This document shows positions 2,570 to 54,100 of a stretch of 63,122 nt of DNA, in pieces. Location of the stretch: contig NZ_JNKU01000006.1 of the NCBI RefSeq assembly GCF_000702165.1, positions 1-63,122 on the forward strand, given 5' to 3'. The translations under genes and the position numbers were made by a program. The DNA comes from Sharpea azabuensis DSM 18934 (GTDB taxonomy: Bacteria > Bacillota_I > Bacilli_A > Erysipelotrichales > Coprobacillaceae). The first letter of the stretch is position 1. Each line of letters begins with the position of its first letter. Below the pieces are notes generated by a model. It was not told where the DNA came from, searched no databases, and saw only the letters and a list, made by a program, of their open reading frames with translations.

Positions 2570-4318
2570 ATGGCTGAAGATAATAAGAAAGCCACAAGAA
2601 GTCACTCCCATAAGAGAAGAACTTCAAAGAAAAGACCACCTAGAAAACAAATAGATACACGTATTTTTGCCTTAGGTGGGTTAAATGAAATCGGAAAAAA
2701 CATGTATGTAGTAGAACATGGTGATGAATTAATAATTATAGATGCAGGGGTAAAGTTCGCTTCAGAAGGTTTACCCGGTGTAGATTATGTCATTCCAGAC
2801 TACACATATCTCAAACAGAACAGTAAAAAAATCAAGGGTTTATTTATTACCCATGGGCATGAAGACCATATCGGGGGGATTCCCTTCTTGCTTCAATTAG
2901 TCCCTATCCCATTTATTTATGCTACGCCACTAGCCTGTGCAATGCTTCGCAGAAAGCTTGAAGAGCATCGTCTTTTAAATGCGACTAAGCTTATTCAGAT
3001 TGATATCGCTGATCCAGGCTGGTCATTACGTACAAAATATTTTAATGTTGGTTATTTCAATACAAACCACTCTATTCCTGAATCCATTGGGATTGTCGTG
3101 AATACACCAAATGGACGTATTATTGAATCTGGTGACTTCAAATTTGATTTAACACCAGTTGGAAGAGCTGCTGATTTCCAGAAGATGAGCTTCTTAGGGG
3201 AAACAGGTGTTGATTTATTAATGGCTGATAGCACGAATGCCGAAGTACCTGCCTTCTCTATTTCTGAAAAGAAAGTATCAGCAACCATCCAACAAGAGTT
3301 CCGTAAAGCTGATGGTCGTATTATCGTTGCGACATTCGCTTCAAACGTGCATCGTGTTGCTCAGATTGTAGATGCGGCTGTACGTTTTAACAGAAAGATT
3401 CTTGTTTATGGTCGTTCAATGGAAAACAACATCATGATTTCAAGAAAGCTTGGTTATATTAAATGTCCAGATCGTTTCTTTATTTCCAATGAAGAAGCCA
3501 AGCATTTACCTGATAACGAAATCATGATTATCTGTACTGGTTCACAGGGTGAAGCTTTAGCTGCTTTAAGTAGAATTGCGAATGGCACACATCGTCAAGT
3601 GAAGATCAAACCAGGCGATACAGTCATCTTCTCATCCAATCCTATTCCAGGCAACCAGGCTTCTGTTAGCCGTGTCATCAACAAGCTTTATCGTGCCGGT
3701 GCCCGCGTGCTTGAAAATTCTGCCATCAGTGACTTGCATACATCCGGACATGCATCACAAGAAGAAATGAAACTGATGTTCTTACTCACAAAACCACGTT
3801 ATTTCTTCCCAATTCATGGGGAATATCGTATGCTTGTGATCCATAAAAATCTTTATGAACAAGTTGGTGGGGAAAAAGATCATGCCTTCATTCTTTCTAA
3901 TGGTGATAGCTTGATTTTACGTAATCATGAAGTCTTCCCAGGTCCACGTGTCCATGCCGATGATATCTATGTTGATGGCAATGACTTAACTGGTCTTTCA
4001 ACAGCTGTTCTTCATGATCGTCAGATTCTTTCTGAAGATGGTATGGTAGCAGTCTTAATTGCCATGGATAGTCATGAAGGCAAACTCCTCAATCGCCCTA
4101 TTATTATGAGTCGTGGCTTTGTCTATATGAAAGATTCCACAGAGATGATCCGTGAAGCAGAACGTATTGTACAAGGCAAACTCAATGCAGAGCTCAAAGG
4201 CAAGACAACCTTTGCTTCTATCAAGAATATCGTTCGTGATAGTCTTACATCCTACTTCCATCAAAAGACAAGAAGACATCCAATGATTATTCCTGTCATC
4301 ATGAATAAGAAAGTCTAA
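2570..4318 (+). CDS. rnj: Ribonuclease J (RNase J1/J2 family)
   Basis: About 582 aa of the metallo-beta-lactamase/beta-CASP fold. The zinc motif HGHEDH is at residues 95-100, and further motifs include SGDFKFD, GSQGEALAAL, SSNPIPGN and the C-terminal histidine motif TSGHASQEE with PIHGEYRML. RNase J is the 5'-3' exo- and endoribonuclease of mRNA decay and RNA maturation in Bacillota. I chose ATG 2570 because AAAGG lies about ten bases upstream; the in-frame ATG at 2552 has none. The N-terminus is a Lys/Arg/His-rich tail (KKRPPRK). It overlaps the next gene by one base (TAATG). Confidence 0.95.
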   Translation: MAEDNKKATRSHSHKRRTSKKRPPRKQIDTRIFALGGLNEIGKNMYVVEHGDELIIIDAGVKFASEGLPGVDYVIPDYTYLKQNSKKIKGLFITHGHEDHIGGIPFLLQLVPIPFIYATPLACAMLRRKLEEHRLLNATKLIQIDIADPGWSLRTKYFNVGYFNTNHSIPESIGIVVNTPNGRIIESGDFKFDLTPVGRAADFQKMSFLGETGVDLLMADSTNAEVPAFSISEKKVSATIQQEFRKADGRIIVATFASNVHRVAQIVDAAVRFNRKILVYGRSMENNIMISRKLGYIKCPDRFFISNEEAKHLPDNEIMIICTGSQGEALAALSRIANGTHRQVKIKPGDTVIFSSNPIPGNQASVSRVINKLYRAGARVLENSAISDLHTSGHASQEEMKLMFLLTKPRYFFPIHGEYRMLVIHKNLYEQVGGEKDHAFILSNGDSLILRNHEVFPGPRVHADDIYVDGNDLTGLSTAVLHDRQILSEDGMVAVLIAMDSHEGKLLNRPIIMSRGFVYMKDSTEMIREAERIVQGKLNAELKGKTTFASIKNIVRDSLTSYFHQKTRRHPMIIPVIMNKKV

Positions 4319-49934: not shown

Positions 49935-50030
49935 ACTATAGTTTGTCTTTTTATACAAACTATAGTGAATTGAAGAAAGGATTGATGTGAAGTAAACTAT
50001 AGTTATGTCTAAAAATGTAAACTATAATTT
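49935..50030 (+). promoter_or_regulatory. Operator array of the XRE gene
   Basis: ACTATAGTTTGT (49935-49946) and ACAAACTATAGT (49955-49966) form a perfect 12-bp inverted repeat. AACTATAGTT (49995-50004), itself palindromic, abuts the ATG, and AAACTATAATTT (50019-50030) is inside the coding region. Four copies of one core suggest cooperative autorepression. Confidence 0.78.
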
Positions 50031-50373
50031 GGGTGGTCGTGTTAAGACACTACGTGAAAACAGAGGCTGGAGTCAAGAGAAATTAGCGACAAAGGTGGGT
50101 GTTACGACGGCTTATTTAGGAGATATAGAACGCAATACAAAGAATCCAACATTTCATGTCATTACACACATTGCCCAAGCCTTTTGTATGTCATTAACAG
50201 AGTTCTTTGATGAACAAATTCTTCCATCATCAGATGATTTAGAATTCATAGATAGAGAAATCATACAAGAGCTTTCAACCTTTACTGATCCAATGGATAA
50301 AAAATCTATTCTTAAAATAATTCTTCTCATTAAAAGTCTACAATCAACTCCTGATAAAAAAGAGCTTGAATAA
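50005..50373 (+). CDS. XRE-family transcriptional regulator with C-terminal extension
   Basis: 122 aa. The helix-turn-helix is RVKTLRENRGWSQEKLATKV, GVTTAYLGDIERNTKNPTFH, then a tail (FIDREIIQELSTFTDPMDKK) similar to those of Bacillota C1-type regulators. ATG 50005 has no close Shine-Dalgarno: an operator copy occupies that place. AAAGGA lies 25 bases upstream, next to ATG-TGA (49985). The nearest target candidates are the accessory genes downstream or the gene itself. The stop codon forms the loop of its terminator. Confidence 0.85.
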   Translation: MSKNVNYNLGGRVKTLRENRGWSQEKLATKVGVTTAYLGDIERNTKNPTFHVITHIAQAFCMSLTEFFDEQILPSSDDLEFIDREIIQELSTFTDPMDKKSILKIILLIKSLQSTPDKKELE

Positions 50374-50388
50374 TTCAAGCTCTTTTTA
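50362..50388 (+). terminator. Terminator of the XRE gene
   Basis: GAGCTTGAA and TTCAAGCTC pair perfectly; the three-base loop is the TAA stop codon; TTTTTATC follows. Confidence 0.85.
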
Positions 50389-50512
50389 TCACAGTTCTAA
50401 ATATATAAACAGTTTCAGTACAAAATAAAAAAATGCGAACCCATCCTCATAGGTCCAGATGTAGGTGATGTCGGCGCACCACACGGCATCTAGACCTACA
50501 ATCCAGAAACAG
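50389..50512 (-). pseudogene. IS3-family transposase OrfB fragment
   Basis: The minus strand reads GLDAVWCADITYIWTYEDGF then AFFYFVLKLF and a stop. VWCADITYIWT is the segment around the first catalytic Asp of the IS3 DDE transposase. Only about 40 codons remain and the reading frame is lost on both sides, so this is a scar of an insertion sequence. It begins right at the XRE terminator. Confidence 0.8.
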
Positions 50513-51000
50513 GAACTTTTAGTGAGAATTTTTAAAAAACCCTCTGAAAGCAGAGCTTTTGCATACTCTCCTGTCTGTCAATCACACCCACAGAATACCA
50601 CAAAACCGGGCCCACTGACATAGGCCCGATTAAATTCATTCCGAATTCATTCGATGATTACGCGACTAAACAGGAACTTTCAATGAGAATTGAGCGATGA
50701 TAAATATCTCTTTTCACATACCAGCTATAGTCTAATATAAAGACACCTATTCTGAAGTAAATCCCAAAAGTTGTACAAATTGAAAATTCACAAGTGTTTT
50801 TTCAGTTAATTCACTATAGAAAATACTTTCAGTGTTAGGAACACAGTTGTAAAAAATTATAATCATCACTTAGATGTGAATAGTCTTAAAAATATCTGCA
50901 TAAAAGTAAACCAATACATAGCATGAGAATGTTAACCCATTCTGTCCTATATTTGATCAAGGAAATTTAATCCACTCCATCGAGCAAAGAAGCCTACATT
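50513..51000. other. Gene-free accessory stretch with IS debris
   Basis: No convincing gene is visible on either strand. Two imperfect copies of a 24-base segment beginning AACAGGAACTTT are at about 50508-50531 and 50669-50692, probably IS remnants. Terminator-like hairpins on the minus strand are CTCTG/CAGAG followed by T6 (50535-50557) and CGGGCC/GGCCCG (about 50606-50630). The part from 50700 to 51000 is AT-rich without recognisable motifs. One of the hairpins may end the operon whose last gene stops at 51001. Confidence 0.6.
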
Positions 51001-52239
51001 TTAGTAGTCCATTATAATCTCAACATTCTTAAGTTTCTGTTCATCTATATTGTCTTTCTTTTTAAGGCAATCCGCTATATAGTCAATCGACTCACTTTCT
51101 TTCACAAATCCCATCAGCTTTGTAGATATGCATCCTTTGCCCTCATTAACCACAAAACTATGTGTAGCTCTTAGATAGCCATAGGGCGCAGAGAGTTCCA
51201 ATTCATCATTGATGATCAGGCCCCCACCTTCAAAAGCTTGCCGAAACATTTCCTCATAGCTATCGCAGATAACATCTTCATAGTGACGTGTATAGCGTTT
51301 GAAGCTATCGATGGAAACTGAACGTAGATGGATAAGCCTATTAGGGATTGTCTGCATACCTATATAGTCATAGATAGAGCAGACAGCCGAATCCTTCTTT
51401 ACAAGTTCATTAGATAGGAATACCTCAGTATAGCGATTGATGAATTCAATACATTCTGCAAAGTAGTACTTGAAACCTGCAGTCTTCATGTTACGCAGCA
51501 GCCGCTTCGCTACATTATAGACAATGAAGTCCTTATACTCTGTTTCCGCTTGCATGAGTTTCTCATAGGCTATAAAGATATCAAAGAGCCGCGGGTTCTT
51601 ATAACTAGATGTTGTTGTATGACTATGCTTGAAATAATTGTAGAGACTTTCCTGCACATAGGAAATCTTCTGACAGTGACATATGATGATAGGAATTAAG
51701 GCAAGATCTTCATAGACCATCTTCTCATAATGATATTCTTGCCATAATTCACGTCTATAGATCTTATTCCAGGAATAGGCATTATTCTCCCCATAAGCAA
51801 GATATGTGCCAATGTCTATGCTAGATGCTGGCTCAGGTAGACTGATGACATCTTCTTCACGCTGCTCATCATCAAAGATCTTATGCACATCACAAACCAC
51901 CATATCGCTATCATGAATGACAGCTTCTTCATAGAGGTGCTCGAACATATCTATTTCAACCCAGTCATCAGCATCCACAAAGCCAATATAGTCACCCGTA
52001 GCTTCTTCAATCCCACGATTTCTGGCCATGCCTTGCCCATTATTGGTTGTATGCAGAACTTTCAGGAAGTCATATTCCTCAGCATACTTGTCACATATCT
52101 CAGCTGTTTTATCAATACTGCCATCATTCACAACAATGATTTCTAAACCATCTCTCATTGTCTGATGGACAAGAGAATCGAGACATCGATGAATATTTTT
52201 CTCTTCATTATAGGCAGCCACAATTACAGATAGTTTCAT
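51001..52239 (-). CDS. Family 2 glycosyltransferase with unassigned C-terminal half
   Basis: 412 aa. Residues 1-110 are a GT-A domain: KLSVIVAAYNEEKNIHRCLD, IIVVNDGSIDKT and YIGFVDADDWVEIDMF with the DxD metal motif, then MVYEDLALIP near 175. This fits nucleotide-sugar transferases. Residues after about 240 are not recognised (SAPYGYLRATHSFVV near 365). No transmembrane helix is obvious. Its ATG overlaps the E1-like gene's stop (ATGA), with GGAGAG upstream inside that gene, so it is the third gene of a coupled operon with a ubiquitin-like carrier. No other glycan genes adjoin. Confidence 0.85.
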   Translation of the reverse strand: MKLSVIVAAYNEEKNIHRCLDSLVHQTMRDGLEIIVVNDGSIDKTAEICDKYAEEYDFLKVLHTTNNGQGMARNRGIEEATGDYIGFVDADDWVEIDMFEHLYEEAVIHDSDMVVCDVHKIFDDEQREEDVISLPEPASSIDIGTYLAYGENNAYSWNKIYRRELWQEYHYEKMVYEDLALIPIIICHCQKISYVQESLYNYFKHSHTTTSSYKNPRLFDIFIAYEKLMQAETEYKDFIVYNVAKRLLRNMKTAGFKYYFAECIEFINRYTEVFLSNELVKKDSAVCSIYDYIGMQTIPNRLIHLRSVSIDSFKRYTRHYEDVICDSYEEMFRQAFEGGGLIINDELELSAPYGYLRATHSFVVNEGKGCISTKLMGFVKESESIDYIADCLKKKDNIDEQKLKNVEIIMDY

Positions 52240-52937
52240 AAGGCGCTCTCCTCTTCCAAACGAATTATATTAAAAATATTATTCTTCATGTCAACATCCA
52301 TTATAAAAGGCCCTTCATTCTCTTCAAAGGTTAGGTATTTGATCACCTCTAAACATTGCAGGCAACTTATCAATCCTACTCCAGCACCAAATGATGCTTT
52401 TTGTCTACAATCTGGATGGTTTGCAGGCTTAAAAATATCTGAATAAGGTGGATAGTTACTTTTCTTTCTACTATAGACAAATCCTTTAAATCCTTCTACA
52501 GCACTAAAAAACACCGGTGTACTTCTTTTGGAACATAAGTCATCTAGTAAATATCTTGTTGCAAGGTTATCAACACAATCGAGAATAATATCAGCATCTT
52601 GCAAAAGAACATCAGCATTACTTTTATCTAAATACTTTTTATACTTTTTCACTTTAGCATATTGATTAATTTCCTTCACTTTTTCTTCAGCAGAATCCAC
52701 TTTATATCTTCCTATATCTTTCTCTAAATGTATTATTTGCCTATTTAAATTAGTAGTATCAACCTTATCACCATCTATCAAAATCAGCTTTTTAACTCCT
52801 AAGGCAACTAAATAAAGAATATTAAGAGATCCTAATCCACCACACCCCACAATTGCCACTGTGACATTTTGTACATTGCTCATACCATTTCGAATTTCTG
52901 GTATCAATAGTTGTCTTGAATATCTATTATCTTCCAT
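52236..52937 (-). CDS. E1-like adenylating enzyme (MoeB/ThiF/HesA family)
   Basis: 233 aa. It has RYSRQLLIPEI, the ATP loop GCGGLGS (31-37), IDGDKVDTTNLNRQIIH, the Arg/Lys pair of DIGRYKVD and DCVDNLATR (Asp120/Asp123). These adenylate the C-terminal glycine of a ubiquitin-like protein. The usual CxxC zinc pairs of MoeB and ThiF are not seen; cysteines near the C-terminus are Cys177, Cys192 and Cys195. ATG 52937 is preferred: its Shine-Dalgarno GGTGG is formed by the Gly-Gly codons of the upstream gene. An in-frame GTG at 52946 would overlap that site. Confidence 0.9.
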   Translation of the reverse strand: MEDNRYSRQLLIPEIRNGMSNVQNVTVAIVGCGGLGSLNILYLVALGVKKLILIDGDKVDTTNLNRQIIHLEKDIGRYKVDSAEEKVKEINQYAKVKKYKKYLDKSNADVLLQDADIILDCVDNLATRYLLDDLCSKRSTPVFFSAVEGFKGFVYSRKKSNYPPYSDIFKPANHPDCRQKASFGAGVGLISCLQCLEVIKYLTFEENEGPFIMDVDMKNNIFNIIRLEEESAL

Positions 52938-52938
52938 A

Positions 52939-53169
52939 TTATCCACCAGCTAATTGCAAAAGTACATATACTTTCTTTGTCATAGGTTCTAAAGCATCAA
53001 ACACTTCCATAGCATTATAGAATTGATTATTAATCATAAACGAGCAATTCCATTTTATTTCATCATTTTCAAACAGTTCAGGAAGAATTTGCTTTAGTTC
53101 TTTAATAAACTGCTCTTTCGTTGTGAATTTCGAAATCAAATAGTTCTTACCAGCAAAACATATATCCAT
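52939..53169 (-). CDS. MoaD/ThiS-like ubiquitin-fold carrier protein ending in Gly-Gly
   Basis: 76 aa ending VYVLLQLAGG-stop. The size, the alternating strand-helix-strand pattern (ICFAGKNYLISKF, TKEQFIKELKQILPELF, KWNCSFMINNQFYNAMEVFD), the terminal Gly-Gly and the directly coupled E1-like gene indicate a beta-grasp carrier of the MoaD/ThiS type. Such proteins carry sulfur as a C-terminal thiocarboxylate or are conjugated to targets. Overall similarity to MoaD is low, so the family rests on these features together. GGGAG precedes the ATG; a promoter is at 53232-53261. Confidence 0.75.
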   Translation of the reverse strand: MDICFAGKNYLISKFTTKEQFIKELKQILPELFENDEIKWNCSFMINNQFYNAMEVFDALEPMTKKVYVLLQLAGG

Positions 53170-53231
53170 TTAATTCTTCTCCCTTTCGTTAAAAATAGCT
53201 AAATAGTTACAATATCAATATCATCTCTATG

Positions 53232-53276
53232 ATTATATTATAGCAACGCATCAGGTTGTAACAGATGTTTAACCTG
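53232..53276 (-). promoter_or_regulatory. Probable promoter and operator of the carrier/E1/glycosyltransferase operon
   Basis: On the minus strand TTACAA (53261-53256) and TATAAT (53237-53232) have an 18-base spacer. CAGGTT (53252-53257) and AACCTG (53271-53276) form an inverted repeat, with AACA/TGTT nested inside, across the -35 box. A repressor site is possible; no specific factor is implied. Confidence 0.55.
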
Positions 53277-53612
53277 TTCAATATTTATACTATCATCAAA
53301 CGCATACAACGTGAAGACAATGACCAGCTCTCCTGTCCTTACTGCCGAGGGCGGCTCATCAATGAGACGAATTGTCTGAAAAACACGCATCCTGAGTTGA
53401 TGAAAGAGTGGGCTGCTAATGAGAATGCTCTTATTGAGGTATCGGCCACTGAAATAAGCGACAAGTATAATGGAAAGGCCTGGTGGATATGTCCTGTGTG
53501 CGACTACAAATACACAATGTCTGTGCAGGCTAGATGCCTGAAAGAAAAACGTCACCAGAACGCACGTCCAAGATGCAATGGTAGACTACAGAAAAGACTT
53601 CATTTCCTCTGA
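53265..53612 (+). pseudogene. Truncated zinc-ribbon/treble-clef (DUF4379-like) gene
   Basis: The frame gives 115 codons with SCPYCRGR, NTHPELMKEWAANENA, GKAWWICPVCDYKYTMSVQA and ARPRCNGRL. The pattern (P-E-L-x-x-E-W, then W-W-x-C-P-x-C) matches the repeated zinc-ribbon domain of DUF4379-type proteins, often linked to nuclease or mobile-element proteins. The first unit is missing its front half, the ATG has no ribosome binding site and lies in the operator of the divergent operon. I read it as a remnant of a larger gene. Confidence 0.6.
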
Positions 53613-54023
53613 TTGTCATGAAACGCCCATAATAGATGTTGTAGGGCGTTTTAAATTTCAATAAACCAAGTGAACAAAAAATAAAGTTCATTTTTATAAA
53701 TTCAAGGAAAATACATTTTTTAAGATAATATCGTGAATTAATATGCCGTAACTATAAAATCAATGGCACAGCGTAAATAAAAAAGCGAGTTGTTCGGATA
53801 ACCCGGACTTCTCGCTCTCACAATCAACATTATAGCAATATGCTTTTTGTATCATATAAATTGACACTATCAATATGTAATATAATGAATCAATCGAAAT
53901 TCTTATAGAAATGTTCTGGCTTCTATCATGTCAATAAATTATTCTCAAAAGTTCATTTTTCTGAAAATATCTCCAAAATTTTTTCAGAAAATCCAATTTT
54001 TTCAGAAAAGATTTTAAAAGGAA
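53613..54023. other. Gene-free stretch between the zinc-ribbon remnant and tRNA-Thr
   Basis: No gene is seen. A hairpin AAACGCCC/GGGCGTTT (53621-53652) could end the remnant. A larger minus-strand terminator-like hairpin (GCGAG/CTCGC with inner CGG/CCG, then T6) is at 53778-53817. Three copies of TTTTC(A/T)GAAAA, each nearly palindromic, lie at 53957, 53981 and 53999, just downstream of the tRNA. TTGACA at about 53871 with TATAAT 14 bases later is a weak plus-strand promoter candidate. Confidence 0.55.
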
Positions 54024-54100
54024 TGGTGCCGGAGATGGGATTCGAACCCACGACCTACTGGTTACGAGTCAGTTGCTCTACCAATTGGAGCTACTCCGGC
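54024..54100 (-). tRNA. tRNA-Thr(CGU)
   Basis: The minus strand folds as a full cloverleaf: acceptor GCCGGAG/CTCCGGC, D-arm GCTC/GAGC, T-arm GTGGG/CCCAT with TTCGAAT loop, and encoded CCA. The anticodon loop CTCGTAA gives CGU, reading ACG (Thr). The anticodon stem ACTGA/CCAGT has an A31-C39 mismatch next to the loop. In the related UGU tRNA this pair is A-U. It lies alone, not in a tRNA cluster, at the edge of the accessory stretch. Confidence 0.95.

What the first reader, a model, noticed from the sequence alone, without database searches (positions are those of the whole stretch)
51001..53169. Stand-alone ubiquitin-like carrier, E1-like enzyme and glycosyltransferase operon
Three coupled minus-strand genes: a 76-aa protein ending LAGG, an E1-like enzyme with intact ATP motifs, and a GT2 glycosyltransferase, joined by 1- to 8-base overlaps. 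MoaD/ThiS carriers with E1 partners normally serve thiamine, molybdopterin or cysteine synthesis, and no such gene is nearby. Linking the carrier to a glycosyltransferase suggests either sulfur transfer into a sugar or glycan (as ThiS-like carriers do in thiosugar antibiotics) or carrier conjugation controlling or modifying the transferase or its product. The position between an IS scar and a tRNA marks it as accessory.
Basis: partly seen in the sequence, partly recalled or inferred. Interest (0 to 1): 0.85.

Follow-up and report, generated by a model that had tools for sequence, protein, structure and literature searches.

The report
Carrier–E1–glycosyltransferase operon in one species
A gut-type bacterium has picked up three tightly coupled genes: a small protein ending in Gly-Gly, an enzyme of the kind that activates ubiquitin-like carriers, and a sugar-transferring enzyme; the grouping is real but found only here, and what it makes is unknown.

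Summary
Three intact minus-strand genes overlap or abut at 51001–53169: a 76-aa protein ending LAGG, a ThiF-family E1 (Pfam E=1e-57, every adenylation residue present) and a GT2 glycosyltransferase (E=3e-39). They sit in a roughly 3.6-kb accessory insert beside tRNA-Thr. A congeneric genome has about 0.3 kb of unrelated DNA there.

"Stand-alone" holds genome-wide. The only other E1 is TcdA-like; no other ThiS/MoaD was found, and ThiG gives only weak partial hits. The E1 keeps the ThiF-type crossover cysteine (C180) but lacks both zinc CxxC pairs and a rhodanese domain. It is an orphan lineage, at most about 40% identical to anything found.

No homologous trio turned up in the 316 genomes held for the order, or in samples of 395 (class) and 392 (phylum). 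E1 relatives pair with thiamine, MoaD/AOR, sulfhydrylase/JAMM or YcaO/TfuA genes, or form two-gene pairs without a glycosyltransferase. The β-grasp fold of the 76-aa protein is not shown (no Pfam match, AlphaFold pLDDT 64, no structural match). A BexX-style thiosugar route is unlikely.

Best reading: a laterally acquired carrier/E1 module whose activated or thiolated C-terminus serves a GT2-dependent glycan step.

The parts
52939..53169 (-). 76-aa putative ubiquitin-like/sulfur-carrier protein ending KKVYVLLQLAGG; Shine-Dalgarno AAAGGGAG upstream
   Evidence: ORF, sequence; no Pfam/NCBIfam match; AF2 single-sequence pLDDT 64, helix-strand-strand-helix order compatible with ThiS but not conclusive
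52236..52946 (-). E1-like ThiF/MoeB-family adenylyltransferase (GTG start 52946, 236 aa; likelier ATG start 52937, 233 aa); ThiF-C184-like Cys180 kept, both CxxC zinc pairs absent, no rhodanese domain
   Evidence: Pfam ThiF 1.2e-57; PDB best UBA4/ThiF/MoeB; alignments
51001..52239 (-). GT2-family glycosyltransferase, 412 aa, motifs VNDGS37, DADD89, YED176; extra C-terminal region (about residues 318-412) absent from about 40 compared GT2 relatives (mostly 320-350 aa)
   Evidence: Pfam Glycos_transf_2 2.7e-39
52236..52239 (-). ATGA start/stop overlap joining E1 and GT2; GT2 Shine-Dalgarno lies inside the E1 end
   Evidence: read from sequence
50388..54011 (.). accessory insert relative to congeneric genome G031, between the HTH gene (50005-50373) and tRNA-Thr; approximate limits
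54024..54100 (-). tRNA-Thr(CGT) bordering the insert
50439..50491 (+). fragment matching a locus elsewhere in the genome that carries IS3-type transposase-like ORFs (the 'IS scar'); 24-nt direct repeats nearby at 50507-50530 and 50668-50691
53265..53612 (+). DUF4379 treble-clef zinc-finger fragment, high GC3, foreign-looking, facing away from the trio; probably insert debris
   Evidence: Pfam PF14311 7e-11, composition

Best explanation
[quoted passage not shown] The activated carrier is used in the same pathway as the GT2 enzyme, most likely to modify the glycan or small acceptor that the GT2 makes or uses. Shown: gene structure, coupling, E1 and GT2 families with intact motifs, no other carrier or ThiF/MoeB-type E1 found in the genome, and accessory status. 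Inferred: the carrier fold, its activation, thiocarboxylate formation, and any link to the glycan.
For: Genes translationally coupled. E1 closest by sequence to UBA4/ThiF/MoeB, enzymes that act on carriers; all adenylation residues and the crossover Cys kept. Small gene directly upstream of the E1 with a Gly-Gly end, the arrangement seen beside many E1 relatives. No ThiS/MoaD or second MoeB/ThiF elsewhere and no convincing ThiG, so a housekeeping thiamine or Moco role is unlikely. No JAB peptidase over cut-off, no E2 next to it. GT2 catalytic motifs intact.
Against: No second genome with a homologous trio, so co-function of the GT2 with the pair has no comparative support. Carrier fold unproven: AF2 pLDDT 64, no Foldseek match, profile score against a UBL family no better than shuffles. 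No rhodanese, desulfurase or ThiG-like acceptor enzyme in the operon. GT2 composition (GC3 0.40) differs from the E1 (0.22), which may mean separate origins.
Confidence: 0.4

Rival explanations
1. The carrier/E1 pair is a self-contained general module (sulfur supply for tRNA or small-molecule thiolation, as TtuB/TtuC-type systems do) and the GT2 is a passenger that happens to be co-transcribed.
For: Two-gene UBL(GGG)+E1 pairs with no GT and no shared neighbour genes occur in several genomes of the class (L065, L067, L069-L072, L079). GT2 composition differs from the pair. No trio elsewhere.
Against: The ATGA overlap with an internal Shine-Dalgarno is tighter than a random neighbour would give. 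Those pair E1s lack the crossover Cys that this E1 has.
Confidence: 0.27
2. A non-canonical protein-conjugation system (Urm1/SAMP/TtuB-like): the E1 alone activates the carrier, which becomes attached to lysines of proteins such as the GT2, controlling it.
For: Carrier/E1 pairs without E2 can conjugate in archaea (T. kodakarensis, PMC11323500). The crossover Cys is retained, and there is no sulfur-donor domain in the E1.
Against: No JAB/DUB peptidase over cut-off in the genome and no E2. PADLOC matches are only the generic ThiF domain.
Confidence: 0.18
3. A RiPP-like pathway: the 76-aa protein is a precursor, the ThiF-like enzyme activates or cyclises its C-terminus (as MccB, GrcB or EnfB do), and the GT2 glycosylates it (compare SunS).
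For: ThiF-like enzymes do this in RiPPs (PMC12250964). SunS is a GT2-fold peptide glycosyltransferase and appears as a weak match.
Against: The E1 is a bare ThiF domain with no N-terminal peptide-binding domain. Its best matches are UBA4/ThiF/MoeB, with MccB and PaaA far weaker. No transporter or protease gene adjoins. The C-terminus is LAGG, not a RiPP-like core.
Confidence: 0.1
4. A BexX-type thiosugar pathway supplying a thiosugar to a glycan.
For: Sulfur carriers feed 2-thiosugar synthesis in Amycolatopsis (PMC4784017, PMC11323500), and the operon has a glycosyltransferase.
Against: Needs a ThiG/BexX-like synthase. None is in the operon, and the genome shows only weak partial ThiG hits of about 32 bits.
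Confidence: 0.04

Closest known systems
ThiS-ThiF / MoaD-MoeB sulfur-carrier activation
   Same: Small upstream gene with Gly-Gly end, ThiF-fold E1 with all adenylation residues and ThiF-like crossover Cys
   Different: No ThiG/ThiC/ThiH/MoaE nearby; no other carrier found in the genome; E1 lacks zinc CxxC pairs; carrier not recognised by PF02597; GT2 coupled instead
Stand-alone carrier(GGG)+E1 pairs of related Bacilli (L065, L067, L069-L072, L079)
   Same: Two-gene carrier/E1 pairs without thi/moa partners; zinc CxxC also missing
   Different: Those E1s have no crossover Cys, carriers end in RGGG/QGGG and belong to a recognisable family, and no GT2 is present
Carrier + E1 + JAMM + O-acetylhomoserine sulfhydrylase cluster (L003) and carrier + E1 in AOR/tungsten loci (L129, L131)
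   Same: Among the closest E1 relatives within the same order (37-39% identity)
   Different: Have defined metabolic partners, zinc sites (L003, L129) and recognisable ThiS/MoaD carriers
Legionella plasmid MoaD/ThiS + E1 + YcaO + TfuA + ATP-grasp cluster (L061)
   Same: Accessory, plasmid-borne use of a carrier/E1 outside thiamine and Moco; crossover Cys kept
   Different: YcaO/TfuA thioamidation-type partners, rhodanese-like extension on the E1
Urm1-Uba4 / SAMP / TtuB-TtuC
   Same: Works-like candidate: carrier with E1 only, able to do sulfur transfer and conjugation
   Different: No rhodanese domain, no tRNA thiolase gene adjoining; membership not established

Membership tests
ThiF/MoeB/UBA4 E1-like superfamily (E1) | ThiF domain with nucleotide-binding and adenylation residues | tested here: met
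   Pfam ThiF 195 bits; residues invariant in alignment
ThiF/MoeB/UBA4 E1-like superfamily (E1) | Crossover-loop Cys (ThiF C184-like) | tested here: met
   PDC180RQKA aligns with TCKQAG/NCSEAG/NCSEIG of relatives
ThiF/MoeB/UBA4 E1-like superfamily (E1) | Two CxxC zinc pairs | tested here: not met
   PPYSD at the first pair and no C-terminal pair; some bona fide relatives also lack them, so not excluding
ThiS/MoaD carrier (76-aa protein) | C-terminal Gly-Gly on a small protein beside an E1 | tested here: met
ThiS/MoaD carrier (76-aa protein) | Recognisable PF02597 sequence profile | tested here: not met
   no Pfam match to ThiS at E<10; PF02597 genome search does not pick it up at E<10; UBL profile score within shuffles, 587 of 4862 equal or better
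ThiS/MoaD carrier (76-aa protein) | Beta-grasp fold | tested here: inconclusive
   AF2 pLDDT 64, pTM 0.52, no Foldseek match
Thiamine or molybdopterin pathway | ThiG, or ThiS/MoaD plus MoeB/ThiF genes in the genome | tested here: not met
   (MoaE itself not searched)
BexX-type thiosugar pathway | ThiG-like thiosugar synthase | tested here: not met
   only weak partial ThiG hits of about 32 bits
Bub/Bil-type E1-E2-DUB systems | E2 and JAB/DUB partners | tested here: not met
   no E2-like gene adjoining; no JAB over cut-off in the genome
RiPP ThiF-like adenylyltransferases (MccB, GrcB, EnfB) | N-terminal peptide-recognition domain and adjoining export or protease genes | tested here: not met
   ThiF domain spans residues 9-231 of 236; no such genes adjoining
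GT2 glycosyltransferases | GT-A fold motifs (NDGS, DxD, ED) | tested here: met
   Pfam 135 bits, motifs intact
Protein conjugation (Urm1/SAMP-like) | Isopeptide conjugates with Gly-Gly remnant | not testable with these tools
   needs proteomics

The most novel reading that the evidence does not exclude
The GT2 enzyme uses the carrier's thiocarboxylate itself as acceptor (or the carrier delivers sulfur in its active site), so that a Gly-Gly carrier, its E1 and a glycosyltransferase form a minimal pathway to an S-glycosyl product or 1-thiosugar, a use of ubiquitin-like carriers not reported in the papers searched.
Probability: 0.07. Interest if true: 0.85.

Novelty: new variant of a known kind. 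Interest (0 to 1): 0.42.

Why it matters
If the three proteins work together, ubiquitin-like carrier chemistry would extend into glycan assembly, and a gut-type bacterium without recognisable thiamine or molybdopterin carrier genes would offer a clean background to test it. Even if the GT2 is a passenger, the E1 is a deep orphan lineage with a carrier that standard profiles miss, which shows that such pairs are under-counted.

Tried and rejected
(1) Finding the trio elsewhere: E1 searches of the 316 genomes held for the order, 395 class and 392 phylum genomes, genome contigs, plasmids, phages and IMG/VR gave no orthologue, best about 40% identity. (2) Carrier homologues: none in plasmids; chance-level hits in phages (E about 5); none in IMG/VR. 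(3) Carrier as PF02597 or UBL by profile: not significant. Two pairwise global alignments gave z of about 3 (L061, L065), but out of 15 trials and not backed by the profile test. (4) Structure: the carrier model is too poor for fold search. The GT2 single-sequence model failed (pLDDT 39). (5) GT2 origin: relatives are 30-41% identical over the catalytic part only and none shares the C-terminal extension. (6) Defence-system reading: PADLOC hits are generic ThiF only. (7) A regulatory RNA or tandem repeat in the insert: none. (8) tRNA-derived att repeats: none found. (9) Literature for a carrier/E1/glycosyltransferase operon: none found in the held library.

Full report
What is there. The three ORFs lie exactly where stated and are uninterrupted. 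The E1 stop and GT2 start overlap as ATGA, with the GT2 Shine-Dalgarno inside the E1 end. The carrier stop and E1 start overlap by 8 nt from a GTG, or are separated by one base from the better ATG at 52937. The E1 matches Pfam ThiF over residues 9-231 (E 1.2e-57) and the GT2 matches Glycos_transf_2 (E 2.7e-39); the 76-aa protein matches nothing.

The E1. By sequence its best solved relatives are UBA4, E. coli ThiF and MoeB; MccB and PaaA are far weaker. All adenylation residues are invariant in an alignment with eight relatives. It keeps a crossover cysteine, C180 (PDCRQKA, aligned with TCKQAG/NCSEAG of relatives), but lacks the first CxxC (PPYSD) and the C-terminal one, and has no rhodanese domain. 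In a tree of 26 E1s it has the longest branch (1.92) and no supported sister: an orphan lineage.

The carrier. Identification as a ubiquitin-like carrier rests on position, size and the KKVYVLLQLAGG end. A profile built from eight GGG-ending carriers scored it no better than shuffled versions of itself: 587 of 4862 shuffles equal or better. AlphaFold without relatives gave pLDDT 64 and an order helix-strand-strand-helix, as ThiS has after its first hairpin, but no confident fold and no Foldseek match. I put about 0.85 on a beta-grasp carrier by inference, mainly from context.

The glycosyltransferase. The motifs VNDGS, DADD and YED are intact. It is about 80-90 residues longer than the relatives compared: about 40 of them align over residues 1-230 to 1-318 only, and none shares the C-terminal part. 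Its GC3 (0.40) is well above that of the E1 (0.22); each lies about 2 standard deviations from the local mean, on opposite sides.

Genome context. In the congeneric genome G031 the same flanks (HTH gene on one side, tRNA-Thr and mscL on the other) are separated by about 0.3 kb of unrelated sequence, so the trio sits in a replaceable accessory slot of about 3.6 kb. The insert also holds a fragment matching an IS3-type locus and a foreign DUF4379 zinc-finger fragment. The only other E1 in the genome is a TcdA-like protein. PF02597 finds no ThiS/MoaD at a meaningful score, and ThiG gives only weak partial hits. No JAB peptidase passes its cut-off. So the pair does not appear to serve thiamine or molybdopterin from elsewhere in the genome; MoaE itself was not searched.

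Relatives. No genome among the 316 held for the order, the 395 sampled from the class or the 392 sampled from the phylum has an orthologous E1. The nearest E1s in the order pair with sulfhydrylase/JAMM genes (L003), a JAMM gene (L130) or MoaD/aldehyde-ferredoxin-oxidoreductase genes (L129, L131). More distant ones pair with thi genes on plasmids or with YcaO/TfuA/ATP-grasp on a Legionella plasmid. Two-gene carrier/E1 pairs without obvious partners recur in several small-genome members of the class, so a partnerless pair is not unique; what is special here is the coupled GT2 and the orphan status.

Mechanism. The most economical reading is E1 adenylation of the carrier Gly, an acyl intermediate on C180 (as in ThiF; PMC12250964), and a thiocarboxylate or other activated carrier used in the GT2's pathway. 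Sulfur would have to come from a housekeeping desulfurase (inferred, not tested). Thiosugar formation in the BexX manner needs a ThiG-like enzyme (PMC4784017), which was not found. Conjugation by a carrier/E1 pair without E2 is known (PMC11323500) and cannot be excluded. A passenger GT2 remains a serious rival, because comparative support for the trio is absent.

Verdict. Observation confirmed; interpretation partly supported. A new variant of the known carrier/E1 kind, of moderate interest until the carrier fold is shown or a second trio is found.

Noticed in passing
L065/L121, L067/L127, L069/L122, L070/L123, L072/L125, L079/L126: A recurring two-gene pair, a 68-aa carrier ending RGGG or QGGG plus an E1 without crossover Cys or zinc pairs, in unrelated neighbourhoods of small-genome Bacilli; no shared partner gene seen. 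Looks like an uncharacterised carrier/E1 family.
   Followed up: partly
L005:5688-6648 and L121:5774-6764: The same kind of pair lies between serine-biosynthesis-like genes and a carbamate-kinase/MocA/xanthine-dehydrogenase-type (molybdenum hydroxylase) cluster in an Erysipelotrichaceae MAG and a class relative (functions judged by eye from the translations), suggesting a Moco role for that branch.
   Followed up: no
L061 (Legionella hackeliae plasmid NZ_LN681226.1 95053-99729): MoaD/ThiS + E1 + YcaO + TfuA + ATP-grasp genes on a conjugative plasmid: a likely thioamide-type modification cluster.
   Followed up: no
window 51001-51290 (GT2 residues about 318-412): C-terminal extension of the GT2 with no match in any library; a low-confidence model suggests helix-three strands-helix.
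   Followed up: partly
window 53265-53612: Foreign-looking DUF4379 treble-clef fragment between the trio and tRNA-Thr, facing away from the trio.
   Followed up: no
L042 about 3494-3780 (G031): In the congener, the slot between tRNA-Thr and the HTH gene holds a C-terminal remnant that looks by eye like a glycyl-radical-enzyme activase, so the slot seems to be a repeated insertion/replacement site.
   Followed up: no
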